From NCBI GenBank assembly GCA_029906195.1, contig JARWSJ010000001.1, positions 2,728,001 to 2,792,000 of the forward strand: a DNA stretch of 64,000 nucleotides, read 5' to 3'. Below, in pieces: positions 19,214 through 60,017 of the stretch (the first letter of the stretch is position 1; each line of letters opens with the position of its first letter). The translations under genes were made by a program, and so were the position numbers. The notes under the pieces are model-generated. The model made no database searches, was not told where the DNA came from, and worked only from the letters and a program-made list of their open reading frames with translations. This DNA comes from Chitinophagaceae bacterium 26-R-25 (GTDB lineage Bacteria; Bacteroidota; Bacteroidia; Chitinophagales; Chitinophagaceae).

Positions 19214-19224
19214 TTAGTGTTAAG

Positions 19225-36620: not shown

Positions 36621-36681
36621 GGTGCACCATGCTTTGTCGAACTGACGAAGCTGATACCGCAAGAATAAAATGCTGCACTTG

Positions 36682-36725
36682 TTAATTCTTAATTCCTAAT
36701 TCCTAACTCCTAATTCCTAATTTCT
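36682..36725. repeat. Heptanucleotide repeat abutting the SusD stop codon
   Basis: A third tract of TAATTCC-type heptads reaches to within two bases of the stop codon of the SusD gene, in the same orientation as the tract at 35811. Confidence 0.8.
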
Positions 36726-43026: not shown

Positions 43027-43095
43027 ATAGATTACAAGGGAATACTTCCGGCGTGCATCGCGCCATTTTTAATTTTGATAGTGCAATCAAATAAA

Positions 43096-43130
43096 AAAGC
43101 TCTATGATTAATTGTTAATCATAGAGCTTT
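43096..43130 (-). terminator. Bidirectional terminator between AraC and symporter
   Basis: Perfect 15-bp stem (AAAGCTCTATGATTA and its complement) with a five-base loop. On the minus strand it is followed by TTTATTTG, which suits the symporter operon; it can also end the convergent AraC transcript. Confidence 0.9.
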
Positions 43131-43153
43131 CGAAATTACATTAAGACGGAAGT

Positions 43154-44722
43154 TTAATTGAACAAAATATAAATGAGCGCCATTACAACAGCTAAGGCTC
43201 CCCACAACAACCATACTTTTTTACCATTACCAAGAGCCATTTTTCGATTGGTTTCTAATAGCGATGGTAAAGCCTTGCCATTTGTTTGTTTGGTAAGCAA
43301 GGACACAATTACCATAACCACCAGCAAGACACAAAAAATATAAAACGACAACATCAAAAAGTGTGGCCAGAATCCTTTGTAAGGATATCCCACCACATAA
43401 CACACGCCTATGATAAGGCAGGCGAGGCCGCCTCCATAAAGCACTACATTGGCAGCAATACTGGTAACGCGCTTCCAAGTAATGCCAGCGAGAAACACTA
43501 CTGAAAGAGGTGGCGCCAGTATGGAAACCAATCCCTGCACAAGGTCGAAAAAGCCCTTGCCAGAATGCGAATACAGAGACGCAATACCAATAGCAAGTAT
43601 TGCAGCAACGACAGTGAACAGTTTACCAAAACGTCGCAGCGTTGTATCATCCATCTTTTTAAACCGGCTTACCACATCCAAAGTAAAAACGGTGCTAAAA
43701 GAATTGAGAGCCGAAGAGACAGTATCAATCAAAGCCGCAACCAAAGCCGCTACACATAAACCAAGTAAACCATGCGGCATTAATTGCTTAATCATTGTAA
43801 CGTAAGCATTATCTGGTTGGGCAACATTTCTGAACAAAACAAAACACATGATACCAGGGAAAATGAAAATAAGTGGCATCATAATTTTCAAAGCCGCAAT
43901 AAACATCGCACCATATTGCCCCTCTTCGATATTTTCCGCAGCCAATACTTTCTGAACAATCGTTTGGTCCGCACACCAGTAATAAATAGCCACAACAGGA
44001 TAACCAAGCAAAACAGCTATCCATGAGTATTCAGGATCTGACGCGGGTCTGAACAACATCCAGTAATTTTTAGGTGTTTGTTGAACCAGTCCCGATATAC
44101 CACCTATTTTATGGAGCCCCATATAAGTGAGGATGATGGAAGACACTATAATAATGATGGATTGAAAAATACCGGTACGAACGACCGCCTTTAACCCGCC
44201 AATGGCTGTAAAACTTGTAGCAATAACGGCAACAATAATCATCGACTGCATTAACGACCAACCAAATATTTGCGAAATAATAAGCCCTCCTGCATACAAC
44301 GCCCCACCCAACCATACTACCAGGATGGAAATGAGACTATAAATCACCAGAAAATTGTATGATTTTTTACCAAATCGCAATAACAGAAATTGCGGCATGG
44401 TACTTATTTTAGTGGTGAGGTAATGCGGGAGGAAAAACATCGCAAGCATTAACAGGAATACCCATGCGAGCCATTCAAAGTTACTTCCTACAATTCCCTG
44501 GGAAAAACCTATGCTGGCAAAACCAACCAACATCGTAGGGCCCGCATTGGCACTAAACATGGAGAACCCTATTTGCCACCACTTTAAAGAGCGGCCACCT
44601 AAAAATATGTCTGCATTTGATTGATTCTTTCTCGACAGGTGAATCCCTACAGTGAGAAGTGCTACCAAATATAGCAGCAGGACCAAATAATCTAACCAGG
44701 AAAGTGTAACATTCACAAGCAA
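43154..44722 (-). CDS. Sodium:solute symporter (SSS/SLC5 family)
   Basis: A 522-residue integral membrane protein with about 13-14 hydrophobic segments. NADIFLGGRSLKWWQIGFSMFSANAGPTMLVGFASIGFSQG is the SSS N-terminal signature region, and LVAALIDTVSSALNSFSTVFTLDVVSR matches the Na2-site helix. It probably imports a sugar, amino sugar or sugar acid across the inner membrane with Na+. Last gene of a four-gene operon, 14 bp after the enolase-superfamily gene and before a strong terminator. Confidence 0.92.
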   Translation of the reverse strand: MLVNVTLSWLDYLVLLLYLVALLTVGIHLSRKNQSNADIFLGGRSLKWWQIGFSMFSANAGPTMLVGFASIGFSQGIVGSNFEWLAWVFLLMLAMFFLPHYLTTKISTMPQFLLLRFGKKSYNFLVIYSLISILVVWLGGALYAGGLIISQIFGWSLMQSMIIVAVIATSFTAIGGLKAVVRTGIFQSIIIIVSSIILTYMGLHKIGGISGLVQQTPKNYWMLFRPASDPEYSWIAVLLGYPVVAIYYWCADQTIVQKVLAAENIEEGQYGAMFIAALKIMMPLIFIFPGIMCFVLFRNVAQPDNAYVTMIKQLMPHGLLGLCVAALVAALIDTVSSALNSFSTVFTLDVVSRFKKMDDTTLRRFGKLFTVVAAILAIGIASLYSHSGKGFFDLVQGLVSILAPPLSVVFLAGITWKRVTSIAANVVLYGGGLACLIIGVCYVVGYPYKGFWPHFLMLSFYIFCVLLVVMVIVSLLTKQTNGKALPSLLETNRKMALGNGKKVWLLWGALAVVMALIYILFN

Positions 44723-44736
44723 AAATTTAATACGGA

Positions 44737-45909
44737 TTAAATAGAAACCAAAGGCGAAAAGGTTCTGACATCTCTTCTACTCCAGCATTTCTGAGAGACA
44801 ATCTTATTACCCCTTGCACAGAGGTCCCAATCCACCTGCGCTCCACTACCTTCAACGGAAGGCAATACAAACTTCCCGTTCTTTCTCTCAGGCAGCACAA
44901 GGAAGTATTTTTCAAGACCATGCATAATCGCATATAAATATTCAACCTGGCAATGCTGATTAGCAGAAGCCATCAGGGAAGCGGTAAACCACGAGTATCC
45001 TCCCGACGTAAACTGAATGCCTGTTTGATGAGCGAGATCTCTTACTTCCATCCATTCTCTCACACCTCCTATTTGAGTAGGAACGGGTTGTAAATGGCGC
45101 ACGCCCATGTTTACAAGTGCGGGAAATGTCTTCGACGTTCGTTCAGATTCGCCATACGAAATAGCAATCGTTGTACTGCGGGTTAGTTTCTCTATCTGGT
45201 CAAGTGCTGCTGAATGAACAGGTTCCTCGAACCATGCCAGATCTTCACCACCAGTCATATCAATAAATTGTAAAGCCTGTTCACATGTCCATATCTGGTT
45301 TGCATCAACTGCAAGCTTAACATCTTTTCCCATCAAACGACGAACAAATTTCACACGTTCCACATCCTCTTTCATTCTTGAACCAAAGTCCTTACCAACT
45401 TTCATCTTGTAGCAACGTGTGCCTGCATTGAGAAAGCAGGTCAACTCTGCTTCCAACTCTTTCAAAGAATAGTTTGTTCCTCCACCGCTTCCATAAAAAT
45501 CCACCTCATTTCTTTCTGCATTTAAATACTTATGTAGTGGAAGTTTATGACGACGTGCTGCCAGGTCGTGCAGGGCAAGGTCTATCTGACCGAGCACAGC
45601 GGAAGCCTGTCCCCTGAAACCTTCATTTCGTATTGACCAGTATAACTGCGGATATAACTTGTTATACGGTTGGTTTTGGTTGTGTAATAATATCGGTAGT
45701 ATAAAATTTTCTAAAATATTATTGTATGAACTGAATACAGGAGCTTCACCTATAACACCGTCTTCATCTTCCAATGTAAGTATAGCAATACCAAAAGTAT
45801 GAAACGGCCCCATGGTAGCGTCTTGAAAGGGAGGCGCAGCACATGAGGGCTCAAGCGTTCTGATGCGGGCACTGCTGATTTTAAAAACTTCATTATCTAT
45901 TGTATTCAT
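44737..45909 (-). CDS. Enolase-superfamily enzyme with altered catalytic dyad
   Basis: A 390-residue protein of the mandelate racemase/muconate lactonizing type. Lys168-x-Lys170 (CYKMKVGK) and the three metal ligands Asp202 (VDAN), Glu228 (WFEEP) and Glu254 (YGES) are in place. The His-Asp dyad seems absent: the LQPV-P position expected to hold Asp has Val276, and FTSGG has Gly303 where the usual PHG histidine would be. Members dehydrate sugar acids or epimerise their substrates through an enolate. Placed between a kinase and a symporter, it probably acts on an imported sugar derivative. The changed dyad argues against assuming a standard acid-sugar dehydratase. Confidence 0.88.
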   Translation of the reverse strand: MNTIDNEVFKISSARIRTLEPSCAAPPFQDATMGPFHTFGIAILTLEDEDGVIGEAPVFSSYNNILENFILPILLHNQNQPYNKLYPQLYWSIRNEGFRGQASAVLGQIDLALHDLAARRHKLPLHKYLNAERNEVDFYGSGGGTNYSLKELEAELTCFLNAGTRCYKMKVGKDFGSRMKEDVERVKFVRRLMGKDVKLAVDANQIWTCEQALQFIDMTGGEDLAWFEEPVHSAALDQIEKLTRSTTIAISYGESERTSKTFPALVNMGVRHLQPVPTQIGGVREWMEVRDLAHQTGIQFTSGGYSWFTASLMASANQHCQVEYLYAIMHGLEKYFLVLPERKNGKFVLPSVEGSGAQVDWDLCARGNKIVSQKCWSRRDVRTFSPLVSI

Positions 45910-45942
45910 CTGGGCTATTTTTTGTCGTCAGTATTTTGTCAT

Positions 45943-46965
45943 CTATTTAATGTCGTCTATTTCGTGCAATCGTTTTAGGAGCGTCATTTGATTTTTTGCT
46001 CTTACCAGGTTGTGTCCTTCATACTTTACTCCATAATACACATCGTTGTTTAAGTAGTCTGTCAAAAAACGCAATGCCTGCATATAGGTCATGAACTTTC
46101 CCGAAAACATAAACTGCTTTTTTTCCATTGCCGTTAGCTGATCTTTCATCTCATCACTATAACCTTCAATAATTGATACATAGAAGTCTTCCCGCAAAAC
46201 TATCTTCTCAACATCACACTCCTCTTCACTAACGGGTGATACATAGGTTCGAATCATATCTCCCACATCACTGATAAAATATCCCGGCATTATGGTATCC
46301 AGATCAATTACGCAAACACCTTTCCCGCTTTGATCAAATAACACGTTGCTGATTTTCGTATCGTGGTGTGTTACCCTTAGTTTAAATGCAGGATTACCAA
46401 CCATTGACTGGTATTGTTCAACTATGCATTTATGGTAAAGCAACTCGTTGATTAAACTTCGTGCTTCTCTTTTTCGCTTTTCATTTCCGTTTGCAATGGA
46501 ATTGAGAAATTGTTGATAGCGTAAACTGAGATCGTGAAACTGTGGAATGGTAATTTTCAATTGTGTTGAATCAAATCCAGATAGCAGCCTCGTGAATCTT
46601 CCAAATTGCCTTGCTGCTTCGTAGGCTTGTTCCGGGGTTGTGGCTACATCAAGTGTAAAAGAATTTTCAACAAACGGCATCAGGCGAAACCATCCATTTC
46701 CTTTACAAAAGATAATATCGTCTCCGGAAGCAGCATGCAGCGGAGATACAAATTGATACCCGGGGTGATACTTTTGCAAATAATCGGCTATCAACCTGAC
46801 ATTGTAAGCAATGTCCTGGGGTTGCTTGAATACATCGACATTTATCCTCTGAAGGATGTAGTTTCTTTCTGGTGCATATACTTTCCAGGTCCTGTTAATT
46901 AACCCACTTCCAAAAGGTTCCAACTTTGCTTCCGTTAAAGCAAATGAGCTGAGAATTTCCTGCAT
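45943..46965 (-). CDS. N-acetylhexosamine 1-kinase-like phosphotransferase
   Basis: A 340-residue cytoplasmic protein of the aminoglycoside phosphotransferase fold. The catalytic loop is THHDTKISNVLF with Asp202 and Asn207, and VIDLDTIMPG supplies the metal-binding Asp (221/223). SDVGDMIRT follows, as in NahK enzymes that phosphorylate GlcNAc/GalNAc at C-1 with ATP. The N-terminal LINRTWKVYAPERNYILQRIN is the nucleotide lobe. It starts 4 bp after the GH109-like gene, tying phosphorylation to released N-acetylhexosamine. Specificity is inferred from motif similarity; no phosphorylase is nearby. Confidence 0.8.
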   Translation of the reverse strand: MQEILSSFALTEAKLEPFGSGLINRTWKVYAPERNYILQRINVDVFKQPQDIAYNVRLIADYLQKYHPGYQFVSPLHAASGDDIIFCKGNGWFRLMPFVENSFTLDVATTPEQAYEAARQFGRFTRLLSGFDSTQLKITIPQFHDLSLRYQQFLNSIANGNEKRKREARSLINELLYHKCIVEQYQSMVGNPAFKLRVTHHDTKISNVLFDQSGKGVCVIDLDTIMPGYFISDVGDMIRTYVSPVSEEECDVEKIVLREDFYVSIIEGYSDEMKDQLTAMEKKQFMFSGKFMTYMQALRFLTDYLNNDVYYGVKYEGHNLVRAKNQMTLLKRLHEIDDIK

Positions 46966-46969
46966 GGTA

Positions 46970-48322
46970 TTAATATTCGTTATTCAAAGCAAAAACAGGT
47001 TGACGATACATCCATTGTCCTCCTGTAAAATCCGGGAACTCGACCGTTTCATGTCCCAACTCAATTGACTGTTCGCTTAAAGGGGTAATGGCGCTCCAGG
47101 TAGCGGCATCGTAGACATCCATGGGCGTAGGTAATTTTCTTTTTACAGATTCAATGAATGCATTGATTACAAAAAAGTCCATTCCACCGTGTCCTGCTCC
47201 TTCTGCATCTTTGCTCCATTTTGCCCAAAGTGGATGATCATATTTGTCAAGCCACGCTTTTGCGTCGTCCCATTCATCCAATTTATTTGATTTGCCTTCG
47301 ATATACACGCTCTTGTTAACATCCATCCAAAGCCCCTCGGTGCCCTGCACCCTGAAGCCAAGTGAATAAGGCCTTGGCAAATTGGTATCATGCTGTAATA
47401 AAATCGTCTCGCCGTTGGCGCAATCAATGGACGTTGTTACAATATCTCCCAGTTTAAAATTCACCTTTGCATTTGGATGATTTTCACCGCCCAGTTTTAC
47501 AATATGATTGTGCAGCCCTCGCGACTTTGATGAGTAAGAACAGAGTGAAAGAAATCTGTTTCCACGATTTATGTTTGCGTAGTGCGCTATTGGCCCTACT
47601 CCGTGTGTTGGATATAAATCTCCATTTCGATGTACCGAATGGTTTGTTCTCCATTTCGCTTCAGAAAAACCTTTCTCGCCAAACTCAACACCGTAGCCAT
47701 AAGGATGGACTCCATCATTAAATTTTACACCACGCAAATCATGCTGATAGCCTCCCTGTAAATGAATTATTTCTCCGAACAAACCTTGTCTTACCATGTT
47801 CAGCACCGCCATTACATCGCGGCGATAGCAAACATTTTCCAACATCATTACGTTGGCGTTGTTTTTTTCCGCTGTCTTTACAACCTCCCAATGATCATCT
47901 AGCGTAATCCCCAATATTACTTCTGTTGCAACATATTTTAGCCCTGCCTCCAACGCACCGATAACCATAGGCTTATGCCATTCCCATGGGGCTGCAATAA
48001 CTACCGCATCCAATTTTTCTTTTTCAAGCAGCTTCTTCCATGCATAAGGATCGCCCGTATAAATCTGCGGCATTTTCTTACCAACTTTTGAAATCATCTC
48101 CTTGGCGGAAGTAAGCATGCGTTCACTCACATCGCAAATTGCCACCACATCAACATCGTTTCTTTTCAGTAATAGTTCGAGATGGTTTTGTCCACGGAGG
48201 CCCGTTCCCAATAGTGCAAGCCGAACATTCGCATCTCCCATGTTGGCAAATAATTTTTTTCCGGGAACCGCTATCGCTCCGACAGCAAGTGCAGTTGTCT
48301 TAATAAAGTCCTTTCTTTTCAT
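46970..48322 (-). CDS. GH109-like Gfo/Idh/MocA protein (NAD-dependent glycosidase)
   Basis: A 450-residue protein with an export signal of Tat type in which the twin-arginine is Arg-Lys (MKRKDFIKTTALAVG). NAD-binding GTGLRG at 39-44. MLENVCYRR (160-168) and HRNGDLYPTHGVGPIAHYANINRGNRF (231-257), with Tyr237 and His240, match GH109 alpha-N-acetylgalactosaminidases, which act by an NAD-assisted oxidation/elimination mechanism. The usual EKP of dehydrogenases is replaced by TEVIL, as in GH109. First gene of the operon with the kinase, enolase-family enzyme and symporter. The family is well supported; GalNAc specificity is not shown. Confidence 0.85.
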   Translation of the reverse strand: MKRKDFIKTTALAVGAIAVPGKKLFANMGDANVRLALLGTGLRGQNHLELLLKRNDVDVVAICDVSERMLTSAKEMISKVGKKMPQIYTGDPYAWKKLLEKEKLDAVVIAAPWEWHKPMVIGALEAGLKYVATEVILGITLDDHWEVVKTAEKNNANVMMLENVCYRRDVMAVLNMVRQGLFGEIIHLQGGYQHDLRGVKFNDGVHPYGYGVEFGEKGFSEAKWRTNHSVHRNGDLYPTHGVGPIAHYANINRGNRFLSLCSYSSKSRGLHNHIVKLGGENHPNAKVNFKLGDIVTTSIDCANGETILLQHDTNLPRPYSLGFRVQGTEGLWMDVNKSVYIEGKSNKLDEWDDAKAWLDKYDHPLWAKWSKDAEGAGHGGMDFFVINAFIESVKRKLPTPMDVYDAATWSAITPLSEQSIELGHETVEFPDFTGGQWMYRQPVFALNNEY

Positions 48323-48648
48323 ACAGCAATTAAAAAATATTAAACTGTTAGGGAGAGCTGTAATTGTTGGAGACTATATTAATTTCTCGTTCAAAACAGT
48401 AGTCATCCTTGGCCCAACTCTCCCTTGTTCATAAAAGTAGCTGTCGACAACACCAAAAAACAAAGTCAGTTTTGACATTTTCGCATGCTTTTTTGATTAA
48501 TCGTAAAATATAAGCGGCGCTGGCTGTTTGCACGTATATGCGAAACGTTATAAAAAAGCCGTTGCATAATCACTACTAATTGATTAACTTAAACGAGCAG
48601 GAGATGAGGCGCATGGTATTTAATTGGTAAAAGTAAACCCGACCAGTA
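48323..48648. promoter_or_regulatory. Divergent promoter region of catabolic operon and lipid island
   Basis: A 326-bp gap between divergent genes, expected to hold both promoters. I see no strong dyad, repeat or RNA structure that I could name. Confidence 0.4.
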
Positions 48649-49368
48649 TTGAACAACCCCTATTACTTAATATTCTTCTATTCAATAAGCTATTTTTCAT
48701 TTGCCATATTGTTATGGCTAAGCAAAGCAAAACAAGGGCTTCGCTTGTTTGACGATAGTGGCTTTGTTGCTAATCCGTCAATGCTCATCCTGCTACATGC
48801 AGGCGGTATCATCCTCTTTTTATTTCCTTTGTTATTTAGTCATTTCAATTCATTTATACTTTTTTCAAATGATGACTTTGAAAGTCCGGCTGCCTGGGTA
48901 ACCATAATTTGTTTCCTCCTTTTATTATTTATTTCTCCAAAAATTGCGCAAAAAAAATATAGTAAGTCTGGAGGAAATGTATTGCCAGCCAAGTTGCCTG
49001 GGATACACTTTATCATCCTCTATTTTATCGTTCGTATATTATTTATCTGTGTTTATGAAAGTTGGTTCAGGGGTTATTTATTAAGTGATTCTATCAGCAG
49101 TTTGGGATGGGTGTTGGCGGTTTTGCTTAACGTTATCCTGTATGCGCTTTTGCATATTGTGAATGGGAAAGATGAAGTGATTTCCTGTTTTCCGTTTGGG
49201 ATATTGCTTTGTTGTTTATGTATATGGCAAGGAGCAGTATGGCCTGCAATTGTATTGCATTTGGCTTTGACACTTCCCTATGAGATCAGCCTGTTAAAAA
49301 AAATGTACACTAATAAGCAGCAGCCACATGAAAATTTTAGTAACGGGAGCTTCAGGGTATCTCGGTAA
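48649..49368 (+). CDS. CPBP-like integral membrane protein, probably degenerate protease
   Basis: A 239-residue protein with about 7 membrane segments. YESWFRGYLL (136-145), LYALLH (164-169) and VLHLAL (202-207) match the three CPBP (Rce1/abortive-infection) motifs. The first glutamate of the usual EE pair is Tyr136, so peptidase activity is doubtful. The start is a TTG in the best frame; no ATG lies upstream in frame and no clear ribosome-binding site is visible, so the N-terminus is uncertain. It overlaps the next gene by 41 bp, implying co-translation in the lipid island. Confidence 0.7.
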   Translation: MNNPYYLIFFYSISYFSFAILLWLSKAKQGLRLFDDSGFVANPSMLILLHAGGIILFLFPLLFSHFNSFILFSNDDFESPAAWVTIICFLLLLFISPKIAQKKYSKSGGNVLPAKLPGIHFIILYFIVRILFICVYESWFRGYLLSDSISSLGWVLAVLLNVILYALLHIVNGKDEVISCFPFGILLCCLCIWQGAVWPAIVLHLALTLPYEISLLKKMYTNKQQPHENFSNGSFRVSR

Positions 49369-50317
49369 TAAACTGGCGAATAAACTTGCCGGCCTTGGTA
49401 ACGAGGTCCATGCCCTTGTGCGGCCCTCTTCTTCAATACAATTTCTAGAGCACCCTCATATAAAAATATTTAAAGGCGATATTTTAGATAAAGAGCGTTT
49501 GATGACGGCCATGCATGGTTGCACACAAGTATACCATGCCGCAGCCAAAGTGGGTGCATGGGCAAAAGATCCGGCTGTTTTTTATGATGTGAATGTAGAA
49601 GGCACTAGGAATGTTTTGGATGCAGCTTTGGCATTGGGTGTTGAAAAAACAATTTTTACCAGTAGCTCCGGAGTGCTTGGCCCAACGCTTGATAAACCTC
49701 TCGAAGAAAACGATTCCCGCCAGATTGATTTTGTGATTGATTATGATCTTTCAAAAAAACAGGCAGAAGATATTGTTGGCGCTTATGCAAAAGAAGGAAT
49801 GAATGTAGTGATTGTGTCGCCTTCAAAAGTGTACGGCCCGGGCAATGTTTCTCATTCACTTACAGCCAATGCTATCATTGATACTTTTCTACAAAAAAGA
49901 ATCGCATTTATTCCATCGCCCGGTAACAACTGTGTTTGCTTTGCATTTGCAGATGATGTAGTGGCGGGTCATATACTGGCTATGGAAAAAGGCCGCAGCG
50001 GTGAGCGATATATTTTGGGTGGAATAAACATTTCCTATTATGATTTCTTTCACCGTATAAGGACATTGGCGCACTGCCGTGCAAGTATTATCAGATTATC
50101 AAAAGGCACTATTAAAACATGGGCCGGTTTGCAGGAAATAACCAATAAAGTTTTTGGTGTACCGGTTCGGTTTCCTGTAAAATCAGTGGACCATGTTTTT
50201 AGCAACTATACATTCTCCAGCAGGAAAGCAATTGAGGAACTTGGTTATAGCATCACGCCGCTGGATGAGGCATTGCTGCAAACTATTCATTTTTTAAAAC
50301 GCAACCAACATGCCTGA
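49328..50317 (+). CDS. Extended short-chain dehydrogenase (3beta-HSD/epimerase type)
   Basis: A 329-residue soluble enzyme. Rossmann motif GASGYLG (7-13), TSSSGVLGP with the catalytic Ser/Thr (about 111-119) and Tyr139-x3-Lys143 (YDLSK). SPSKVYGPG and the C-terminal region resemble 3beta-hydroxysteroid dehydrogenases, OleD-type ketoacid reductases and hopanoid-associated HpnA. It is likely an NAD(P)-dependent oxidation or decarboxylation catalyst on a lipid alcohol. Start ATG lies inside the CPBP gene; the end overlaps the next gene by 8 bp. Confidence 0.88.
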   Translation: MKILVTGASGYLGNKLANKLAGLGNEVHALVRPSSSIQFLEHPHIKIFKGDILDKERLMTAMHGCTQVYHAAAKVGAWAKDPAVFYDVNVEGTRNVLDAALALGVEKTIFTSSSGVLGPTLDKPLEENDSRQIDFVIDYDLSKKQAEDIVGAYAKEGMNVVIVSPSKVYGPGNVSHSLTANAIIDTFLQKRIAFIPSPGNNCVCFAFADDVVAGHILAMEKGRSGERYILGGINISYYDFFHRIRTLAHCRASIIRLSKGTIKTWAGLQEITNKVFGVPVRFPVKSVDHVFSNYTFSSRKAIEELGYSITPLDEALLQTIHFLKRNQHA

Positions 50318-51200
50318 TCGTTTTTATACCTTAATTACCGGCGCCAGTGAAGGCTTTGGTAAAGCCCTGGCCATTGAATGCGCAAAGCGAAAAATGAATC
50401 TCATACTGGTAGCATTGCCCGGTATTGAATTACACGATTTAGCTACGCTGATAAAACGTGATTACACAGTGGAAGTAATCGTTATTGAGAAAGACCTCTG
50501 TGAAGAAAATAGTTGTTATGAAGTGTTTGACCATGTAATGTCGTTGGGGCTATGCGTAAATATGCTGCTCAATAATGCGGGTACAGGCAGTACGGGCTCA
50601 TTTGCAGCAGGTGACATTCGTTTGTTTGAAAGACAGATCAAATTGAATGTACTTGCCAGCACTATTATTGTTCGCCTTTTCATTGATGAGTTAAAACAAA
50701 ATAGCCCTTCCTATATTTTAAATGTTGGAAGCCTAGCTTCTTTTTTTCCTCTGCCCAAAAAACAGGTGTATGGTGCTACAAAATCATTTATTTATTATTT
50801 CTCAACATGTTTACGCAAAGAATTAAAGCAAGACCAGGTGTATGTGAGTCTTATATGTCCGGGCCCTATGCTTACAAATATCACTGTCCGGTCGGTCATT
50901 GAAAATGGAAATTGGTTGATCAGGAATTGCTGCTTTCACCCGGAAGCAGTTGCTCCGATAGCTATTGATGGCTTATTAAAAAAGAAGAAAGTGATGGTTC
51001 CCGGAAAGCTCAACAATCTTTATATACTAGTGTATACCTTATTGCCTGATTTTATTAAATCGATCATTACAAACCGTTCTACAAAAAAATTAAATTCTGC
51101 CTCTTTCGAAAATATTGCTTTAGAAAGCTCATTAGCGGTGAACGCGCCACAGTTTGGTCATAACAATGATAGAATTGATTCGAAAAACAGCCATTTTTAA
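50310..51200 (+). CDS. Classical short-chain dehydrogenase/reductase (keto-lipid reductase type)
   Basis: A 296-residue protein. Cofactor motif GASEGFG (11-17), NNAG (88-91), Ser141 and Tyr154-x3-Lys158 (YGATK). Sequence style is that of 17beta-HSD12/3-ketoacyl or 3-ketosphinganine-type reductases. The C-terminal part after about 215 includes VYTLLPDFIKSIITNRS, a likely membrane-association segment. It ends 3 bp before the hydroxylase gene, so coupled expression is clear. Expected reaction: NAD(P)H reduction of a ketone on a lipid. Confidence 0.87.
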   Translation: MPDRFYTLITGASEGFGKALAIECAKRKMNLILVALPGIELHDLATLIKRDYTVEVIVIEKDLCEENSCYEVFDHVMSLGLCVNMLLNNAGTGSTGSFAAGDIRLFERQIKLNVLASTIIVRLFIDELKQNSPSYILNVGSLASFFPLPKKQVYGATKSFIYYFSTCLRKELKQDQVYVSLICPGPMLTNITVRSVIENGNWLIRNCCFHPEAVAPIAIDGLLKKKKVMVPGKLNNLYILVYTLLPDFIKSIITNRSTKKLNSASFENIALESSLAVNAPQFGHNNDRIDSKNSHF

Positions 51201-51203
51201 ATT

Positions 51204-52004
51204 ATGTTAACCTTCAATATTATAGGAGTAAGCTTAATGCTCATCGTTTTCGCCGTAGAAATTACGCTGGTGATCATACATACGCCGGAGAAGAAAATGA
51301 TTAAGGATATAAAGGCTAACTTTTTGCTGGGACTGTTTTATTTGATAACGGGCCTGTCGGTGAAGGGTTTGGCTTTCAGTGTTTATTCCTTTTTCTATTA
51401 TTTCTCTATTTTCAAGCCAGACTTAACCTGGTGGTTATGGATTGCTGGGTTTTTGGGTTGTGAGTTTTGTCATTACTATTATCACTGGCTTGGGCATAAG
51501 ACAAGAGTTTTTTGGGCAGCTCATGTAACACATCACTCTTCCGAATACTTTAATATTTCTACAGGATTTCGCAATAATTTTTTACATGTATTTTACAGGT
51601 TCCTTTTCTGGTCACCGCTTTGTTTATTAGGAATTCCCCCAGCGATGATTTTATTTTTTGAATCAATAACAGCTATTCAAAACTTCCTGGTACATACAGA
51701 AAAAATCGGCAAGCTTGGAATACTGGACCGAATATTTAATACGCCGTCTAATCACCGGGTGCATCATGGTGTAAATCCCGAGTATATCGATAAAAATCTT
51801 GGCGGCATAACACTTATCTATGATCATTTATTTGGTACTTATGCCCGGGAAGTTGAACCAGCCATTTACGGAATCACCCATAATATTCATACCCATAATC
51901 CGTATAAAATAATTTTACACGAGTACATCCGCCTTAAAAAAGAGTTAGCTACCATCAAAGGTTTTTCAGCCAAACTCAGGTATTTATTCTCGCCCCCTGA
52001 TTAA
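51204..52004 (+). CDS. Fatty acid hydroxylase/sterol desaturase superfamily protein
   Basis: A 266-residue membrane protein with the full di-iron histidine set: H90-x3-H94-x3-H98 (HYYYHWLGH), H107-x2-H110-H111 (HVTHH), H164, and H184-x2-H187-H188 (HRVHH). About 4-5 membrane segments flank these. Family members hydroxylate or desaturate sterols, carotenoids, sphingolipids or fatty acids using O2. The last gene of the lipid island, followed by a terminator at 52104-52139. A fragment matching its final codons recurs at 62627-62690. Confidence 0.93.
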   Translation: MLTFNIIGVSLMLIVFAVEITLVIIHTPEKKMIKDIKANFLLGLFYLITGLSVKGLAFSVYSFFYYFSIFKPDLTWWLWIAGFLGCEFCHYYYHWLGHKTRVFWAAHVTHHSSEYFNISTGFRNNFLHVFYRFLFWSPLCLLGIPPAMILFFESITAIQNFLVHTEKIGKLGILDRIFNTPSNHRVHHGVNPEYIDKNLGGITLIYDHLFGTYAREVEPAIYGITHNIHTHNPYKIILHEYIRLKKELATIKGFSAKLRYLFSPPD

Positions 52005-52103
52005 GATTTTTATCTCGCCTGAAAAGATATTCTTCGCCGTCTATCGACTATCAATATGCTCTCTTTTTTCTTTGTTACTTTTTTTGTGGTTTTCAAAGCC
52101 AAC

Positions 52104-52139
52104 AAAAAGCCAGCGAAGAATTGACCTTGCTGGCTTTTT
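52104..52139 (+). terminator. Terminator after lipid island, shared with convergent mannosidase
   Basis: 11-bp stem AAAAAGCCAGC / GCTGGCTTTTT with T-rich flanks on both strands, lying between the convergent hydroxylase and mannosidase genes. The surrounding 58 bp are a near copy of 24242-24299. Confidence 0.85.
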
Positions 52140-52159
52140 GTTTTAAGACGCCCTCTTCA

Positions 52160-54865
52160 CTACTCTAGCACAAAACTTACAGGGGCAAATGCATGAAGAA
52201 AAAACGACATCGAATTATTTGTAACGGCCATTTTTTTCCCAACTATTTCACCGCGAAGATTGACCGGTGTAGCGCTTGTATATTTCAGGCCATCCGGAAA
52301 TGTAACGGTAACATTTCCCGATACACCCTCCTGCTCCCAAAGACGCAACAAAGTGGCTTTATTGCTAGCCGCATTTGATGCAAAAACAGGGTTAAAAGGA
52401 CTGTCATGCCGGAAGGCCGTAACCTCCACACCTCGTCTCGAAACGGAGATGCCTTTTTGTTCTACAGGAAGTTTGCCGGCAGGGCCATCAAATTTGGCCA
52501 ACAGCAGTGGATTGCCTGCTTCAAGTGACGGCGTTACCAAAGCCGATTTGCCAGTTTGATTTTTGCCGAATGTCCATATCCGCACTTTTGAACTCCATGT
52601 GCCGGTGTACCAATAGCGATAATTTGTGTTCCACTGGTTGTTGTAAAGATTAAGATAAATAGCGGGTTTATGAGGAACAAAATCTTTGGTAAACTTCCAT
52701 ATGCCGGGTCTATCCAAACTCACAAGCGAATGATCAAATGGATAAAACGCAATGCCAGCCCCATCTTTATCAGCAATTGTTACGCCTGTTCCCACGGCGT
52801 ATAAGTCTTTGTCGGCGTCTTCCATAATGTCTGTCGCAGGATCCATCATTCCTAAAGAACGTCCTACAGTGAATTTCGGCGAATTAATTTTAAACGGAAA
52901 ACAAAACCAGTCTGCTTCCGGCCAGTTGTCCTTTGCTTTGTCGATGATCGTCATTTCCATATCGATAAAAGGTGCATCTTTTTTTAGGGTCACCTTTAAG
53001 GAAGATGCAGGAAGATGATTGGCCGTATCAGCAGGCATGTCAACAACAGCAGTTTGCTCATACGCATTTTGCGTAATTTTTAGAATTCCATTGGCAGATA
53101 CTGCAGCACGATAAGGAACTTTTTTTTCTGATACCATGCCTGGTTTATACATATTCGGATGCAGCCATTCACCTGTCGAACCAAAGGCGTGCAATCCGCG
53201 GCCTTGTTGGTAATCTTTTACATACTTTTCAGTTTGTTCATAAGTAAACCGCTCATTCAGGTATTGACCCAGTCCTTGTTCGGCATTTGCGTCAACCCAT
53301 TCACGGCCGGTTCGCTTGTCGATAAGCGAAGAGATCATTCCGCGGGCAGGGTCAAAGGCGATTTTAAAGAATTCATTTTCCAATGTATTTGCCGCAGCAG
53401 TAACAGGCACATTTTCTACCAGATCTTTTTCTGTGAATGTTTTGTAACCATTTGCAGGAATATCTTTGGCATAAATCACTTTATGCAGATCACTTACTTC
53501 AACCCATTCCGATCTGCTCCACGGCAAGGGATTATACACCACGTAGCGCTTGCCTGTCTTATTCACGTTTTGAGCAAGCAAAGACAGGTTATTTGCCATC
53601 ATCGGTTTTATGATATGCTCCGTTGTGCGTATGTAATCCGTCTTATCCTCCCATGAAGCTTCAAGGTCCTTATAAGTTTCCGGTGACACCTTTTTAAAAT
53701 CCTCGCCGTATTCGTCAATATGTTTTGAACCGCCCCATGTATGCTCCGCATACAGTAAAGCATTTTCATAAGCTTTTGAAATATCTTTTGAAACATCAGG
53801 TGTTGTTATGTTCCAATTGCGTAGTTGTGTGTTGAATTCTTCGGCTGTTGAGATGAGTGGATGAATGTTGCGGAATATCTTCATGCCGCCGGGATCACTC
53901 ATGCATCCATGTATCCAAGTATCAGGCGCTTCTTTGCTGATGACAGGCAACTGTGGATTTGTTTTAAGAATAGCATCGGCAAAATCTTCTAGTCGGCCAA
54001 CGCGAATCTTTACGCCGGGGATTTTTTTTGCTGCCTCGTCAAACAATGCCTGCACATCTTTCGGGGAAGGAGGACCCGAGTTGTCAGGTGTAACGAAGAT
54101 TGCGGGCCATACAGCATAAGGCCAGTTCGGCGGTGGAATTAAATTGCTACCAACTCGTGTATCATTTTCATCGCTCCAATCTTTCGGATATGTCAATCCT
54201 ACAGTAGTACCGTAGATAGGTGAGTAAAGCGTCAACACGCGGCTTCCATCGGGGCCTTCCCACCAAAAAAGGGGCGGATACTTTACGTCGATACTAGGCC
54301 AGTTACAACCAATGTGCATAAACTTTACACCACCGTTCGCCAGCCCCGTTGCCAATGCACTGGTCTGCGATGGAACGTCTGTCATTTTTGCTGCGCGTGG
54401 TAAGGGCAAGCCATATTTTCTTGTAACAAATGAAGAAGGCTCATAGAACCTCGCAAAATCTTCAGGAAACATTATCTGCGATTGGACGGTAAATGGAGCT
54501 GCATGCGTTACAAACCGGCCCGAAGTAAACGCTTGCTCCAACCTGCTGCGGCGCTCTGGTGTTTGGCCAGGCCAATCTTCCAGCACCTTGGCCATTACCC
54601 AACCTGGTGCGGTCCATGCGAACTGCTGCTGTGGCGGCAACTTTTTAGTTTCATCCATTATGTTCAGCGCCTTGTCAATCATGTCAGTCCGATAATATTG
54701 TAAAAGATCTTTGACACGGTGCGTATATCCAAGATCAAAGTGTGTTTTGAATACTACAATGATCTCTTTTACATTTGGATTTACAGCAGCAGAATCGATT
54801 TGTTTCTTTTGCGCAAAACCTCCCATGCAGAAAAAAAGTGCGACCATCAATTTTATTGCTTTCAT
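52160..54865 (-). CDS. GH38-like alpha-mannosidase
   Basis: A 901-residue secreted protein with signal peptide MVALFFCMGGFAQ. Residues 40-50 (KTHFDLGYTHR) carry the HxD metal motif with His42 and Asp44. FMHIGCNWPSIDVKYPPLFWW followed by EGPDGSRVLTLYS is the GH38 block, and DTWIHGCMSDPG is conserved with the copy at 1-2183. The C-terminal third is beta-rich. GH38 enzymes are retaining alpha-mannosidases. It lies downstream of a SusD/SusC pair after a terminator, so it has its own promoter in the 180-bp gap. The paralogue at the left edge suggests two regulated versions. Confidence 0.87.
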   Translation of the reverse strand: MKAIKLMVALFFCMGGFAQKKQIDSAAVNPNVKEIIVVFKTHFDLGYTHRVKDLLQYYRTDMIDKALNIMDETKKLPPQQQFAWTAPGWVMAKVLEDWPGQTPERRSRLEQAFTSGRFVTHAAPFTVQSQIMFPEDFARFYEPSSFVTRKYGLPLPRAAKMTDVPSQTSALATGLANGGVKFMHIGCNWPSIDVKYPPLFWWEGPDGSRVLTLYSPIYGTTVGLTYPKDWSDENDTRVGSNLIPPPNWPYAVWPAIFVTPDNSGPPSPKDVQALFDEAAKKIPGVKIRVGRLEDFADAILKTNPQLPVISKEAPDTWIHGCMSDPGGMKIFRNIHPLISTAEEFNTQLRNWNITTPDVSKDISKAYENALLYAEHTWGGSKHIDEYGEDFKKVSPETYKDLEASWEDKTDYIRTTEHIIKPMMANNLSLLAQNVNKTGKRYVVYNPLPWSRSEWVEVSDLHKVIYAKDIPANGYKTFTEKDLVENVPVTAAANTLENEFFKIAFDPARGMISSLIDKRTGREWVDANAEQGLGQYLNERFTYEQTEKYVKDYQQGRGLHAFGSTGEWLHPNMYKPGMVSEKKVPYRAAVSANGILKITQNAYEQTAVVDMPADTANHLPASSLKVTLKKDAPFIDMEMTIIDKAKDNWPEADWFCFPFKINSPKFTVGRSLGMMDPATDIMEDADKDLYAVGTGVTIADKDGAGIAFYPFDHSLVSLDRPGIWKFTKDFVPHKPAIYLNLYNNQWNTNYRYWYTGTWSSKVRIWTFGKNQTGKSALVTPSLEAGNPLLLAKFDGPAGKLPVEQKGISVSRRGVEVTAFRHDSPFNPVFASNAASNKATLLRLWEQEGVSGNVTVTFPDGLKYTSATPVNLRGEIVGKKMAVTNNSMSFFLHAFAPVSFVLE

Positions 54866-54971
54866 AATACGTGCTTTGAAATTATAATGATTTTAGTGCT
54901 ATGGTTTTGTTGCGCCGCACCCCAATAATTCTTAAAAGTTACTTCTTGTGCTACATCTTTCCAACAAATAA

Positions 54972-55000
54972 AGATGCACGCGCAATTTACGCATGCATCT
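54972..55000 (-). terminator. Terminator after the third SusD
   Basis: Stem AGATGCATGCG / CGCGTGCATCT (one mismatch) with a seven-base loop, followed on the minus strand by TTTATTTGTT. It lies 46 bp beyond the SusD stop codon. Confidence 0.75.
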
Positions 55001-55045
55001 GTAAAAGAATTGTTTGATATGGATAAGTATTTCGATGCCTGGCTA

Positions 55046-56569
55046 TTAGTATCCGGTATTCTGTATCAAGGCAGGTTTCAATATATCGATTTCAGATTGA
55101 GGAAATGGCCACAAGTAATGCTTCTGCTCAAAAACTCTGTGTGCGCCGCCAGGATCTACTATTAGAGGAAGTACCTGGTCAGCAATATGCCATCTCTTAA
55201 GATCAAAATAGCGTGTTCCTTCCATTGCAAATTCTATTCGTCTTTCTTGTCTGATGCGACTTCTCATTTGATCCTGAGATAATCCGGCAGGAACCGACGG
55301 CATGTTTACACCTGCTCTGCCACGTACTTTGTTGATGGCTGCATATACAGTAGCATCGGGCCCCTGCGCTTCATTTTGTGCTTCAGCGTACATCAATAAT
55401 ACATCTGCATATCGTATAAAAACGAAATCCTGTGTGCTTTGATAAGCGGAATTCATGTTCGGATCAGCAAATTTTTTTGACAAAAATCCTGTATGATTAT
55501 CACCCACAAATGGCTCAAAGTGTCCCGTAGCACTACCTACATAAGGATCTCCGGGTAGTAAGATAGTTTTCTTCAATCTTGGATCCCTATTGTTATAGGG
55601 ATTTGCAGGATCCACTGGGGAACCGTCCACCGTTTCATATGCATCTACAAGTGATTGGATGGGCTGTAAAGATTGCCAGTAAGTATAATAAAGATCCATA
55701 TAAGAAAATGCATCCGTCGCCTGGTAACGAGCCGAAAACATAATCTCAGGATTGTCCATTTGGCCCGGTTTTATAAACAGACTGTTGTAGTCATCACTCA
55801 ACTTGAATTTTCCACCATCAATTATCGCTTTGGATACGGCAGCACTCTCTGACCACTTTGCATTGTAAAGCAACACTTTTGCTTTTAGAGCCTGTGCGGT
55901 GCCTTTAACAACATGGCCACTGTATGAATCGTCATTCAGTTTGCCAATTGCATATTCAAGATCGTCTAAAACGGTTTTTACTACTTCGTCTTTTGTACTC
56001 TTCGGTCTTTTAACATTATTTATATTTTCAGGAGTCAGGCTTAAAATAACCCCTCCATAAATTTCTGATAACCTAAAGTAATAATAAGCACGAAGCGTCT
56101 TTGCTTCAGCTTTATAACTGTCCTTGAGTGATGCATCCATGTTAACGTTATCAATGTTGGCCAGGAAAAAATTACTGGCTGCAATTCCCTGATAATCGAG
56201 TTTATATTCGTTGGAAAGCGCACCTCCGGAAGTGGATGTAATTATACCTTTTGCAATGTTGGTAAAACCGCCTTCCCATGGAAAATTACAATAGGCATTG
56301 TCAGACAATCCTTCAAAGTGAGGAGTTAGCGCGCCATACCCTTCGTCCATTGGAGCAAGGAGTTTGTAACAACCTGCCAGAGCCATATCAGCATCGGCCT
56401 GTGTTTTCCAGAATGATTCTGATGAAATGGCATCGAGTGGTTGTTTGTCCAGAAAATCTTTTTTACAGGACGTCAGAAAAAATGGAACAGCGAATAAAAT
56501 TCTAATCCAGTTTATATATAGATGTTGTTTTTTCATTTGATTCTTTTTTAATGACATGTTCAATGCCAT
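55046..56569 (-). CDS. SusD/RagB-type glycan-binding lipoprotein
   Basis: A 507-residue protein; the start in this frame precedes a lipobox VPFFLTSC at about residue 35. LDKQPLDAISSESFWKTQADADMAL, EAKTLRAYYYFRLSEIYGGV, DFVFIRYADVLLMYAEAQNEA and IRQERRIEFAMEGTRYFDLKRW are typical. Met12 (MKKQHLYINWIRILF) may be the real start. It lies 21 bp downstream of the STN-type SusC. Confidence 0.95.
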   Translation of the reverse strand: MALNMSLKKNQMKKQHLYINWIRILFAVPFFLTSCKKDFLDKQPLDAISSESFWKTQADADMALAGCYKLLAPMDEGYGALTPHFEGLSDNAYCNFPWEGGFTNIAKGIITSTSGGALSNEYKLDYQGIAASNFFLANIDNVNMDASLKDSYKAEAKTLRAYYYFRLSEIYGGVILSLTPENINNVKRPKSTKDEVVKTVLDDLEYAIGKLNDDSYSGHVVKGTAQALKAKVLLYNAKWSESAAVSKAIIDGGKFKLSDDYNSLFIKPGQMDNPEIMFSARYQATDAFSYMDLYYTYWQSLQPIQSLVDAYETVDGSPVDPANPYNNRDPRLKKTILLPGDPYVGSATGHFEPFVGDNHTGFLSKKFADPNMNSAYQSTQDFVFIRYADVLLMYAEAQNEAQGPDATVYAAINKVRGRAGVNMPSVPAGLSQDQMRSRIRQERRIEFAMEGTRYFDLKRWHIADQVLPLIVDPGGAHRVFEQKHYLWPFPQSEIDILKPALIQNTGY

Positions 56570-56590
56570 GCTATGAAAAAAAATTGTTTA

Positions 56591-59500
56591 TCAGAATTTT
56601 GCTCTTACTCCGAAGGAATAAATTTTGTTTTGCGGATAAACAACATACCTGCCACTATTGCTTACTCTTTCAGGATCCAGTCCCGGATACTTACTGAACG
56701 TTATCAAATTATCTCCTGAGAAATAAATTCTCAGACTCTGCATTCGCAGTTTTTGGATAACTGCTTTGGGAACGTTGTACCCTATCTGTAAATTTTTTAA
56801 TCTCAGGAAAGAAGCATCGTGGAGGTAATATGTGGATGCATAATTGCTAACGGCAGGGTAAGCACCCCATACATAAATGTTCGGCATCGAATTCGTGTGA
56901 TTGGTCGGTGTCCATCGGTTTCTCCAATCAACGGAGGGCACTGATCCTTGCGCAAATGGTTCAATACCCCAATCAGTTGCATAGGTCTTCTGCCCTTCCG
57001 ATCCAAAAAAGAAAGCAGTAAAATCAAAATTTTTCCAGCCTGCATTAAAATTAAATGAATAAGTGTACGATGGGAAAGCACCCTTTACTTCAACCCTGTC
57101 CTTTTCATCGATAACTCCATCGCCATTAACGTCACGAAACTTCAGATCTCCCGGGTGGGGCGTAACAGGCTGCACTGCGGATTTATTTATTTCATCCTGA
57201 GATTGGAAAACACCAATCCAGTCATACAGATAAAAAGTATTGTATGGCTTTCCCTCTTCGAGGATCGTTCTTGAGTCTATTTCTGTAGCGCCAAATCCCG
57301 TGAGCTTATTCTTATAAGCCTGAATATTTGCCCCAATACCATAGGATACATCTCCTATGTGGTCGCTAAACTGCGCCGCCAATTCAAATCCTGTATTTCT
57401 CATTTTTCCGTTATTCACCGTAGGCGCACTCAAACCGATATAAGTTGGAATTTGAGCACTACGAAGAATATTGAACGTGTTTTTCTGATACCAGTCTGCA
57501 GAGAAGTTCAGCTTTCTTTTAAACAGGCTCAGATCTAAACCCAAATTTGCGATCTCGGTTGTTTCCCATGTAATGTCTTTATCTACAAGACGGGTCTGCT
57601 GTATCCCGGGTGAAACTGAGCTACCATCAAATGGATAACCGGAAGAACTTAAAATATTCTGGTAAGGATACGGATATGATCCACCTATATTTTGATTTCC
57701 GAGCCTACCCCATGATGCCCTGATTTTACCATCACTGAGCCATGAGATTTTGTTGTCAAGAAATCCTTCTTTGGTAAAGCGCCATCCCGCGGATACAGAA
57801 GGGAACAGTCCCCAGCGATTCTCCGGTGCAAATCTTGATGAACCATCATAGCGTGCGTTTGCTTCTAAAAGATATTTTCCTCTAAAATCATAGTTCAGAC
57901 GGCCATAATAAGATCTTATGGACCATTCGTATGTGGTGCCTCCTGTAGATTGCCCGTTAGTTGAACCTGCATTAATTTCCCTTACATCGTTGCTTGGGAA
58001 GTTTAACCTGCCAGCTGATAACACCTGATTTTTAAAGTATTCTTCCTGCGCTCCCCCAAGTACTGAAAAACTGTGGTTTCCGAAAATTTTATTATAAGTC
58101 AACTGACTATAAATCATCGGGTAAACACTTTGATTGTCGGTGACATTCAAAGAATTTCCAGTTACACTTGCAGGATAGAGCTCGCCCGTTCCCCAAAAAT
58201 ATCTGGGCATGGTGGGTGTAAAAACTTTGTTGTTATTAAGCGAAAAGTTTACTCCTCCTCTTGTTTCCCACTGAAGACCCTCTAGTACTTTGATGTTCAG
58301 GAAAAGGTTTGAAAGTAAATAGTATGACTTTTGCTTCCCCGGCGCCTGATCAGCCATTTGAACCGGATTTTTGTTGTTGTTTTCAAAGGCATAAGCTTTG
58401 TAGGTATATCGTCCGCTGCCATCGGGCAAAATGGGTCCATATGTAGGCGCTTGTGCCAGTGTAGCCAAATATTGATCGTCTGTGCCAAGCTGGGCATAAG
58501 TTCTGTCTCCATAATTCATAGTGATGGATGTACCAAATTTCACACTCTTGTTTATCACAGAACTAAGATCAAATTGCAGATTGTATTTTTTATATTCAAT
58601 ACCTCTCATCGTTCCCGGCTGATCAACGATTCCTAACGCAACATTGTAATTGGTTCCATTGTTTCCTCCACTAAGGTTTAAATAATGATTCTGAACGTAC
58701 GCAGTGTTGAACATAATGTTCTGCCAATCGGTATTGGGAAACAACGTTTTGTCTGTAGCGTTTTTGTATTGATTAATTACATCGTCTGAGTATAACGGTG
58801 CCAGTCCTGAATTCTTCGCAGCTTCATTATATAGCTGCATGTACTCTACAGAATTTGTGATCAGCTTTGGTAGCGCTGTAGGATTGGTTATTCCTAAATT
58901 GTAGCCATACTCTAAAGACATGCGTCCGCTTTGTCCATTTTTTGTAGTAATTAAAATCACACCGTTTGCAGCCCTTGAACCGTAAATAGCCGCCGACGCA
59001 GCATCTTTAAGTACCGTGGCAGATTCAATGTTGTTAGGGTCCAAACTGGTTATGTCGCCAGGTAAGCCGTTGATAATAACAAGTGGGCTGTTACCTGCTC
59101 CGCTGAATGTCCCCTGTCCACGTACAAGCAAAGAGATTCCCTCATTTCCCGGTTCTCCGGAATTTTGAACTACCTGTAGTCCCGGAAGCTTTCCCTGCAA
59201 AAGGGATGCGGGGTTTGTAACAACCCTTTTGTTAAGCTCAGCTCCGCTTGCAGTTGCAATGGCTCCGGTAAGGTTTACTTTCTTTTGCGTTCCGTAGCCA
59301 ACCACCACCACATCCTGCTGAATGGCTGTAGCCTGCTTCAACACCAAATTGAAACTTGTTCCGTTGTTAGCACTTCGCTCTACCGTTTCGTATCCTACAT
59401 AGGACACAACTATTACAGCGGAATTATCCGGAATCTCTAAAGCAAAATCTCCATTGTTATCAGTTAATACCGTCTTCTTTGACCCTTTAATTGAAACAGT

Positions 59501-59980: not shown

Positions 59981-60017
59981 TTCAGTTAAAAGCAGTTTAA
60001 TTTTTTGTTCTTTCTAA

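What the first reader, a model, noticed from the sequence alone, without database searches (positions are those of the whole stretch)
49328..52004. Plus-strand trio with the fold set of eukaryotic sterol C-4 demethylation (ERG26/ERG27/ERG25)
An extended SDR with YxxxK and 3beta-HSD-like layout, a classical keto-reductase SDR and a di-iron hydroxylase are overlapped or spaced by 3 bp, so they act together. In eukaryotes the same three enzyme classes remove C-4 methyl groups of sterols. Bacteroidota are not known for sterols, so the substrate may be another polycyclic, carotenoid or sphingoid lipid. Seen: motifs and gene overlaps. Known: the ERG25/26/27 families. Inferred: a joint lipid oxidation-decarboxylation-reduction pathway.
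Basis: partly seen in the sequence, partly recalled or inferred. Interest (0 to 1): 0.75.

Follow-up and report, generated by a model that had tools for sequence, protein, structure and literature searches.

The report
Mobile Bacteroidota lipid-oxidoreductase gene cassette
A small, recently transferred set of four bacterial genes belongs to a conserved but unstudied gene block that probably modifies a membrane lipid, and it is not the sterol pathway it was first taken for.

Summary
The three genes are real, but are three of four: a CPBP (Rce1-like) gene at 48649-49368 overlaps the first SDR. The sterol reading fails: no squalene-cyclase C-domain in this genome; SDR1 misses the SdmB, OleD and HpnA cut-offs; the oxygenase has the nine histidines of AGMO but only 3 of 6 further AGMO-essential residues. 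"They act together" holds: among 79 loci found with SDR2, SDR1 lies beside it in 77, CPBP in 32, and a DUF6134 gene is in 59. The oxygenase is an optional, exchangeable extra (13 of 79 loci). DUF6134 folds like EipB (weakly like LolA) and is fused to an SDR2 relative in one genome. The window's 3.5 kb block is 94% identical to that of Pinibacter soli inside unrelated flanks: a recent transfer. Best reading: an inner-membrane redox module that modifies a lipid, often with a periplasmic carrier. The substrate is unknown. Against: this genome lacks DUF6134, and DUF6134 does not co-occur with SDR2-like genes genome-wide.

The parts
48504..52025 (+). 3.5 kb unit shared with Pinibacter soli, 94.0% nucleotide identity, unrelated flanks
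   Evidence: blastn of window 40001-60000 against L079; boundary sequences and flanks of G001 and G002
48649..49368 (+). CPBP / Rce1-like intramembrane protein, 239 aa, TTG start, YESWFRG motif (one Glu; motif reading recalled)
   Evidence: CPBP beside SDR2 in 32 of 79 loci
49328..50317 (+). SDR1: extended SDR of the HpnA/SdmB/OleD/3beta-HSD kind, 329 aa, S112-Y139-K143, R32
50310..51200 (+). SDR2: classical SDR, 296 aa, N113-S141-Y154-K158, clade signature L36-P37 after the second strand
51204..52004 (+). FAH: AGMO-like membrane di-iron oxygenase, 266 aa, nine histidines 94, 98, 107, 110, 111, 164, 184, 187, 188
52101..52142 (.). perfect 14-bp inverted repeat after the unit, probably a terminator; lies outside the shared 3.5 kb
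   Evidence: function inferred

Best explanation
It is a horizontally transferred copy of a Bacteroidota redox cassette whose fixed core is the SDR1-SDR2 pair, usually with a CPBP membrane protein and/or a DUF6134 protein. Proposed mechanism (inferred): SDR1 and SDR2, on the cytosolic face of the inner membrane, carry out paired oxidation or reduction at the carbonyl/hydroxyl end of a long-chain lipid; where present, a membrane di-iron enzyme (AGMO-like hydroxylase, a second FA_hydroxylase type, or a desaturase) adds an oxygen or a double bond to the same lipid; DUF6134, periplasmic and EipB-like, binds or ferries the product or a lipoprotein. CPBP is a membrane partner of unknown role. The window's copy has CPBP, both SDRs and the AGMO-like enzyme but no DUF6134. 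Shown: gene order, conservation, selection, transfer, fold of DUF6134. Inferred: the lipid substrate, the reactions, their direction, and any hand-over.
For: SDR1 beside SDR2 in 77 of 79 loci, directly upstream in 71 of 78 with mostly overlapping or touching ORFs (median gap -4 bp). SDR1 and SDR2 distances correlate, r 0.949 over 72 pairs, 0 of 1000 permutations reach it. CPBP beside SDR2 in 32 of 79; DUF6134 cluster in 59 of 79 loci (Pfam confirmed on the two members tested), 51 of 78 in the same strand run. The CPBP-SDR1-SDR2 order also in the more distant G664 (L186). Membrane di-iron enzymes: 14 of 196 near ORFs (13 loci) against 3 of 812 far ORFs. The window's FAH clade (window, L085, L099 twice, L094; support 100/100, 31 rows) lies in cassettes only. 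DUF6134 model pLDDT 90; best fold match EipB 6ntr, E 1.7e-5, then LolA at E 2.7e-3. SDR2-DUF6134 fusion, 469 aa. Distant SDR1 genes lie by PAP2 and Rce1-like genes. Recent transfer.
Against: No substrate, product or activity is known. DUF6134 is absent from the window's genome (the same model rang in 53 of 345 genomes). Genome-wide there is no co-occurrence: 4 of 30 genomes with an SDR2-model match have DUF6134 against 49 of 315 without (the 30 include looser SDR2 relatives); of the 5 genomes with the strongest SDR2 matches only G267 has it. The fused gene has no SDR1 beside it. EipB's own ligand is unknown (PMC10787603, passages) and TM-scores are only 0.49 (EipB) and about 0.3 (LolA). The di-iron test used query proteins taken mostly from the cassettes, and loci are related, so its P value is optimistic. 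The mirrored distances partly reflect shared descent.
Confidence: 0.5

Rival explanations
1. Ether-lipid or fatty-aldehyde metabolism: the AGMO-like enzyme cleaves an alkyl-glycerol lipid to a fatty aldehyde, which SDR1 reduces to the alcohol; SDR2 removes another carbonyl.
For: Nine AGMO histidines at AGMO spacing and D196, N198, D207 kept. Best solved relative of SDR1 is 3wj7, which I recall as an aldehyde reductase of Gluconobacter; no paper on it was seen (listing only).
Against: Three of six further AGMO-essential residues differ (Q162 to N124, Y236 to L199, W243 to Y206; mapped by constant offset). The oxygenase is absent from most SDR1-SDR2 loci. Ether lipids in this genus were not looked for.
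Confidence: 0.13
2. Sphingoid, capnoid or ceramide-type lipid: SDR2 is a 3-keto reductase like KDSR, SDR1 a CerR-like ceramide reductase, FAH hydroxylates the chain.
For: SDR2 best named family is mycolate reductase, a beta-keto lipid reductase, 132 bits against a cut-off of 380. In L136 an aminotransferase I/II-type gene (alpha-oxoamine synthase by my reading) and a DUF3419 gene follow the block. Distant SDR1 genes lie by PAP2 genes.
Against: The L136 neighbourhood was seen in that one locus. The core pair is rare (strong SDR2 match in 5 of 345 genomes of the class, 4 of them rows of the query alignment) while sphingolipids are common in the phylum (recalled). No CerR or KDSR sequence could be compared.
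Confidence: 0.17
3. Nucleotide-sugar or glycan chemistry: SDR1 is a sugar epimerase or dehydratase serving the polysaccharide-utilisation genes around it.
For: HpnA is annotated as a sugar epimerase and is the best named family; the window is rich in SusC/SusD-like and glycosidase-like genes by my reading.
Against: The block sits between different genes in P. soli and elsewhere next to regulators or housekeeping genes; it travels as a unit with membrane proteins.
Confidence: 0.1
4. Sterol or triterpenoid C-4 demethylation or an analogue, as first proposed, acting on made or imported polycyclic lipids.
For: Same three fold classes; SDR1 shares a superfamily with SdmB and NSDHL.
Against: No squalene-cyclase C-domain here or full-length in 31 other block-bearing genomes; SdmB cut-off missed by far; oxygenase AGMO-like and usually absent; bacterial C-4 demethylation uses Rieske SdmA.
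Confidence: 0.04
5. Peptide maturation: CPBP is a protease and the SDRs reduce a modified peptide.
For: CPBP fold; ElxO, an SDR that I recall from lantibiotic pathways, is a weak relative of SDR2 (42 bits); an asparagine-synthetase-like gene (my reading) is near one locus (L076).
Against: No recurrent precursor peptide or peptide-modifying enzyme showed up among the gene clusters shared by four or more loci.
Confidence: 0.04

Closest known systems
Eukaryotic C-4 demethylation ERG25/ERG26/ERG27
   Same: One membrane di-iron oxygenase, one extended SDR, one classical SDR
   Different: Oxygenase is AGMO-like and optional; SDR1 is nearer HpnA than SdmB and nearer Gox2253 than NSDHL by score; no squalene-cyclase C-domain
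Bacterial sterol demethylase SdmA/SdmB/SdmC
   Same: Extended SDR (SdmB model matches SDR1 along its length, 152 bits)
   Different: Cut-off is 600; SdmA is a Rieske oxygenase, absent from the block
HpnA, hopanoid-associated epimerase (TIGR03466)
   Same: Best named family for SDR1, full-length, 247 bits; also best for 10 of 10 relatives tested (176-241 bits)
   Different: Cut-off 367.65 missed by all 11; no squalene-cyclase C-domain in this genome
OleD, 2-alkyl-3-oxoalkanoate reductase
   Same: Extended SDR of long-chain lipids
   Different: 106 bits against 580; OleA, OleB and OleC were not searched for
Alkylglycerol monooxygenase (AGMO)
   Same: Nine histidines with matching spacing (one residue shift), D196, N198, D207
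   Different: Q162, Y236 and W243 equivalents differ; 266 aa; substrate untested
EipB (DUF1849) and LolA
   Same: Fold of the partner DUF6134 (EipB E 1.7e-5, prob 1.00)
   Different: 11% identity; not encoded in the window; ligand unknown in both

Membership tests
ERG25/26/27 sterol C-4 demethylation | Substrate supply: squalene/oxidosqualene cyclase | tested here: not met
   SQHop_cyclase_C absent from this genome, control rang in 2 of 14; 4 of 31 block-bearing genomes with partial matches only. Import of sterols is not excluded.
ERG25/26/27 sterol C-4 demethylation | Oxygenase of the ERG25/SMO type | tested here: inconclusive
   No ERG25 sequence or structure was comparable; AGMO-type residues found instead
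ERG25/26/27 sterol C-4 demethylation | SDR2 orthologous to ERG27 | not tested
   No ERG27 sequence at hand; best named family mycolate reductase below cut-off
SdmB | NCBIfam NF052578 cut-off 600 bits | tested here: not met
   151.6 bits; 142.8-166.4 in the 6 of 10 relatives listed at E 1e-40
HpnA | TIGR03466 cut-off 367.65 bits | tested here: not met
   247 bits; 10 of 10 relatives below it
OleD | NF042422 cut-off 580 bits | tested here: not met
   106.3 bits
AGMO | Nine catalytic histidines | tested here: met
   H94, 98, 107, 110, 111, 164, 184, 187, 188, invariant in 31 of 31 rows; positions from PMC7911779 legend
AGMO | Six further essential residues Q162, D233, N235, Y236, W243, D244 | tested here: not met
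   3 of 6 (D196, N198, D207) by constant offset; the others are N124, L199, Y206 (and the window sequence)
AGMO | Tetrahydrobiopterin-dependent cleavage of alkylglycerols | not testable with these tools
   Needs an enzyme assay
Ornithine-lipid hydroxylase OlsE | NF052566 cut-off 475 bits | tested here: not met
   62.7 bits
Mycolate reductase | NF040690 cut-off 380 bits | tested here: not met
   131.9 bits
CPBP / Rce1-like | PF02517 cut-off 22.4 bits | tested here: met
   45.2 bits; proteolysis untested

The most novel reading that the evidence does not exclude
An undescribed Bacteroidota lipid modification-and-export module: a coupled SDR pair at the inner membrane, with an exchangeable membrane di-iron oxygenase or desaturase that tailors the product, hands an unknown envelope lipid to an EipB-like periplasmic carrier (DUF6134), to which an SDR2 relative is fused in one genome; the whole moves between species as a cassette of about 3.5 kb and would alter the envelope of the recipient.
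Probability: 0.3. Interest if true: 0.75.

Novelty: new variant of a known kind. Interest (0 to 1): 0.5.

Why it matters
Every enzyme class here is known, but I found no description of the block (DUF6134: 0 papers; a search for its gene names together gave one unrelated-looking paper; open-licence papers only). It occurs in genera with laboratory strains (Flavobacterium, Pedobacter, Mucilaginibacter), so one knock-out plus lipidomics could reveal a new envelope lipid and give DUF6134 a function. The swap of oxygenase types beside a fixed SDR pair, and recent transfer of a compact unit, suggest a tunable envelope trait.

Tried and rejected
Sterol C-4 demethylation: rejected as above. Solved structures for FAH: nothing by sequence, profile or fold. 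Mobile-element ends: no inverted repeat at the 5' edge and only a terminator-like hairpin past the 3' edge; no clean empty site in G001 or G002, where only the Gfo/Idh-like flank gene (and, in G002, a weaker match to its neighbour) aligned. Plasmids: no DNA match; the protein search found only relatives under 60% identity. Genome-wide co-occurrence of DUF6134 with SDR2: none. Papers: searches (two papers naming Gox2253) gave listings; passages were read in PMC10202945, PMC7911779 and PMC10787603; nothing else was opened. A first ungapped comparison of the flank gene was wrong for want of an alignment and was replaced. A first architecture script stopped with an error and was finished.
Full report
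What is there. The window lies in G000, a genome of 6.5 Mb in the same unnamed genus as G002. The three ORFs are at the stated coordinates. A fourth gene, CPBP (48649-49368, Rce1-like), overlaps SDR1 by 41 bp. All four are under purifying selection between the two species (dN/dS 0.34, 0.13, 0.07, 0.09 for CPBP, SDR1, SDR2, FAH).

Conservation. One scan of genome contigs with an alignment of six SDR2 proteins gave 98 relatives, of which the best 80 were kept as 79 loci. By tblastn SDR1 is on the same strand within 2.6 kb of SDR2 in 77 of 79 (not L093, L119), CPBP in 32 of 79 (33 anywhere), and FAH in 7 of 79 (8 anywhere). ORF-based: SDR1 is the directly preceding ORF in 71 of 78 loci with a called SDR2 ORF; in L094, L126, L129 and L143 one called ORF lies between, L091 starts at a contig edge, L093 and L119 lack it, and in L133 my ORF caller missed SDR2. 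The median gap is -4 bp. Distances of the pair correlate at r 0.949 (71 loci plus the window; 0 of 1000 permutations), partly by shared descent. The query rows mostly came from loci already seen to have the pair or CPBP, so the loci are a sample of that clade.

Partners. A gene cluster shared by 59 of 79 loci, 51 of 78 in the same strand run, is DUF6134 by Pfam for the two members tested. 29 loci have both DUF6134 and CPBP, 30 only DUF6134, and 4 only CPBP (L085, L093, L099, L105). Regulators differ: AraC-type genes with a membrane N-terminus in 19 loci, ECF sigma and FecR genes in 20 of 78 runs. The more distant G664 keeps the order CPBP-SDR1-SDR2. SDR1 relatives in G132 and G185 lie beside Rce1-like and PAP2 genes, and that in G281 beside a PAP2 gene.

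The oxygenase is an exchangeable extra. Near SDR2 I found 14 membrane di-iron enzymes in 13 of 79 loci: the window's FAH type (L085, L093, L094, L099 twice), a second type (L102, L103, L106), a third, shorter FA_hydroxylase (L087, L090, L098 partial, L111), and FA_desaturases (L114, L128). That is 14 of 196 near ORFs against 3 of 812 far ORFs (odds ratio 21, Fisher P 3e-8). The query proteins were drawn mostly from the cassettes and the loci are related, so the P value is optimistic. In a 31-row tree the window's FAH, L085, L094 and both L099 copies form one clade (100/100); the partial L093 copy was left out. In 59 genomes of relatives no FAH outside P. soli exceeded 42% identity to the window's.

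What the oxygenase is. Human AGMO needs H132, 136, 145, 148, 149, 201, 221, 224, 225 and Q162, D233, N235, Y236, W243, D244 (PMC7911779, figure legend). With a constant offset (38, then 37 after one shift) the window has all nine histidines, invariant in 31 of 31 rows, and D196, N198, D207; the other three are N124, L199, Y206 (and sequence). I had no AGMO or ERG25 sequence to align, so this is a position match, not an alignment. That ERG25 has a different motif context is recalled only. No solved structure matched by sequence, profile or fold, although the model is confident (pLDDT 91).

What the SDRs are. SDR1: HpnA 247 bits (cut-off 367.65), SdmB 152 (600), OleD 106 (580); of the solved structures 3wj7 157 bits and human NSDHL 78. 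Ten relatives score 176-241 for HpnA, all below the cut-off. R32 after the second strand, in 71 of 72, suggests NADP(H) (inferred). SDR2: mycolate reductase 132 (380). Where classical SDRs often carry an Arg after the second strand (recalled), this clade has L36 (72 of 72) and P37 (69 of 72), so its cofactor use is open. Its C-terminal region is hydrophobic and in a G377 relative runs on into DUF6134.

DUF6134. The model (46 rows, pLDDT 90) is a long N-terminal helix plus a curved beta-structure. Foldseek: EipB/DUF1849 6ntr E 1.7e-5, prob 1.00, TM 0.49; then LolA at E 2.7e-3 and VioE; only one match has E below 0.001. EipB is periplasmic, affects envelope integrity, and has an unknown ligand (PMC10787603, passages). 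In G377 one 469-aa ORF joins an SDR2 relative (43% identity) to DUF6134 (23%, E 3e-13); no SDR1 lies beside it.

Results against. The window's genome has no DUF6134, and since the same model rang in 53 of 345 genomes of the class (51 over its cut-off) but not in G000 this absence is meaningful. Genome-wide, DUF6134 is in 4 of 30 genomes with an SDR2-model match at 1e-70 (G267, G377, G642, G664) and 49 of 315 without (odds ratio 0.84, P 1), so the link is one of gene neighbourhood only. Strong SDR2 matches (1e-90 or better) are in 5 of 345 genomes, four of them rows of the query alignment (6 candidates scored per genome). DUF6134 is missing in four of those five.

Transfer. Window 48504-52025 is 94.0% identical to the P. 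soli block (3525 columns); the rest of window 40001-60000 shares only a 61-bp repeat with the 18 kb around it. The Gfo/Idh-like flank gene is 77-78% identical in protein in G001 and G002, with saturated synonymous sites (pS 0.79 and 0.82) against dS 0.15-0.25 in the block; orthology of that flank gene is assumed. In window 1-20000 the best match in either genome is 80% identical. G001, in the same genus, has no CPBP match and its best FAH match is 38%. The block has 38.7% GC against 42.3% for the window. No transposase or repeat ends were found at the edges, so the vehicle is unknown.

Sterols. SQHop_cyclase_C: none in G000. I gave the search 33 of 79 loci; 31 genomes were held; 4 had partial matches, 2 over the cut-off (72 and 171 of 319 positions). 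Characterised bacterial C-4 demethylation uses SdmA, a Rieske oxygenase, with SdmB or SdmC (PMC10202945, passages). Modification of imported sterols is not excluded.

Verdict. The co-operation claim is well supported; the sterol claim is not. I commit to a lipid-modifying redox module (0.5), with sphingoid-type (0.17) and ether-lipid (0.13) versions as the leading specific chemistries.

Noticed in passing
window 48504-52025 and L079 6683-10207: The four-gene block is 94% identical to that of Pinibacter soli while all surroundings differ: a recent transfer without visible mobile-element ends.
   Followed up: partly
L184 5583-6992 (-): Natural fusion of an SDR2 relative with DUF6134 in one 469-aa ORF.
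   Followed up: partly
L136 10550-16771: Downstream of the block in Seonamhaeicola: ThiL-like (my reading), aminotransferase I/II-type (426 aa), DUF3419 (357 aa), an acyltransferase-like and an RND-like gene (my readings) in one run; may be a lipid biosynthesis cluster.
   Followed up: no
L120, L127, L130, L137 and other Pedobacter/Mucilaginibacter loci: SDR1-SDR2 followed by ECF sigma, FecR and a protein of about 618 aa with a CarbopepD_reg-like domain (just below its cut-off), i.e. a surface-signalling set.
   Followed up: no
window 52088-52147, 36564-36722 and 2302-2336: Short repeats that recur at other places in G001/G002, one about 135 bp before the block in P. soli (L079 about 6515-6548); possibly REP-like or terminators.
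   Followed up: no
L089 353-3560 and 5549-8807: Two tandem copies of DUF6134-CPBP-SDR1-SDR2 in Flavobacterium gawalongense.
   Followed up: no
L182/L183 and window flanks: In this genome the block sits between genes of sugar metabolism and a large minus-strand hydrolase-like gene followed by SusD/SusC-like genes (my reading). L182 and L183 were fetched but not analysed.
   Followed up: no
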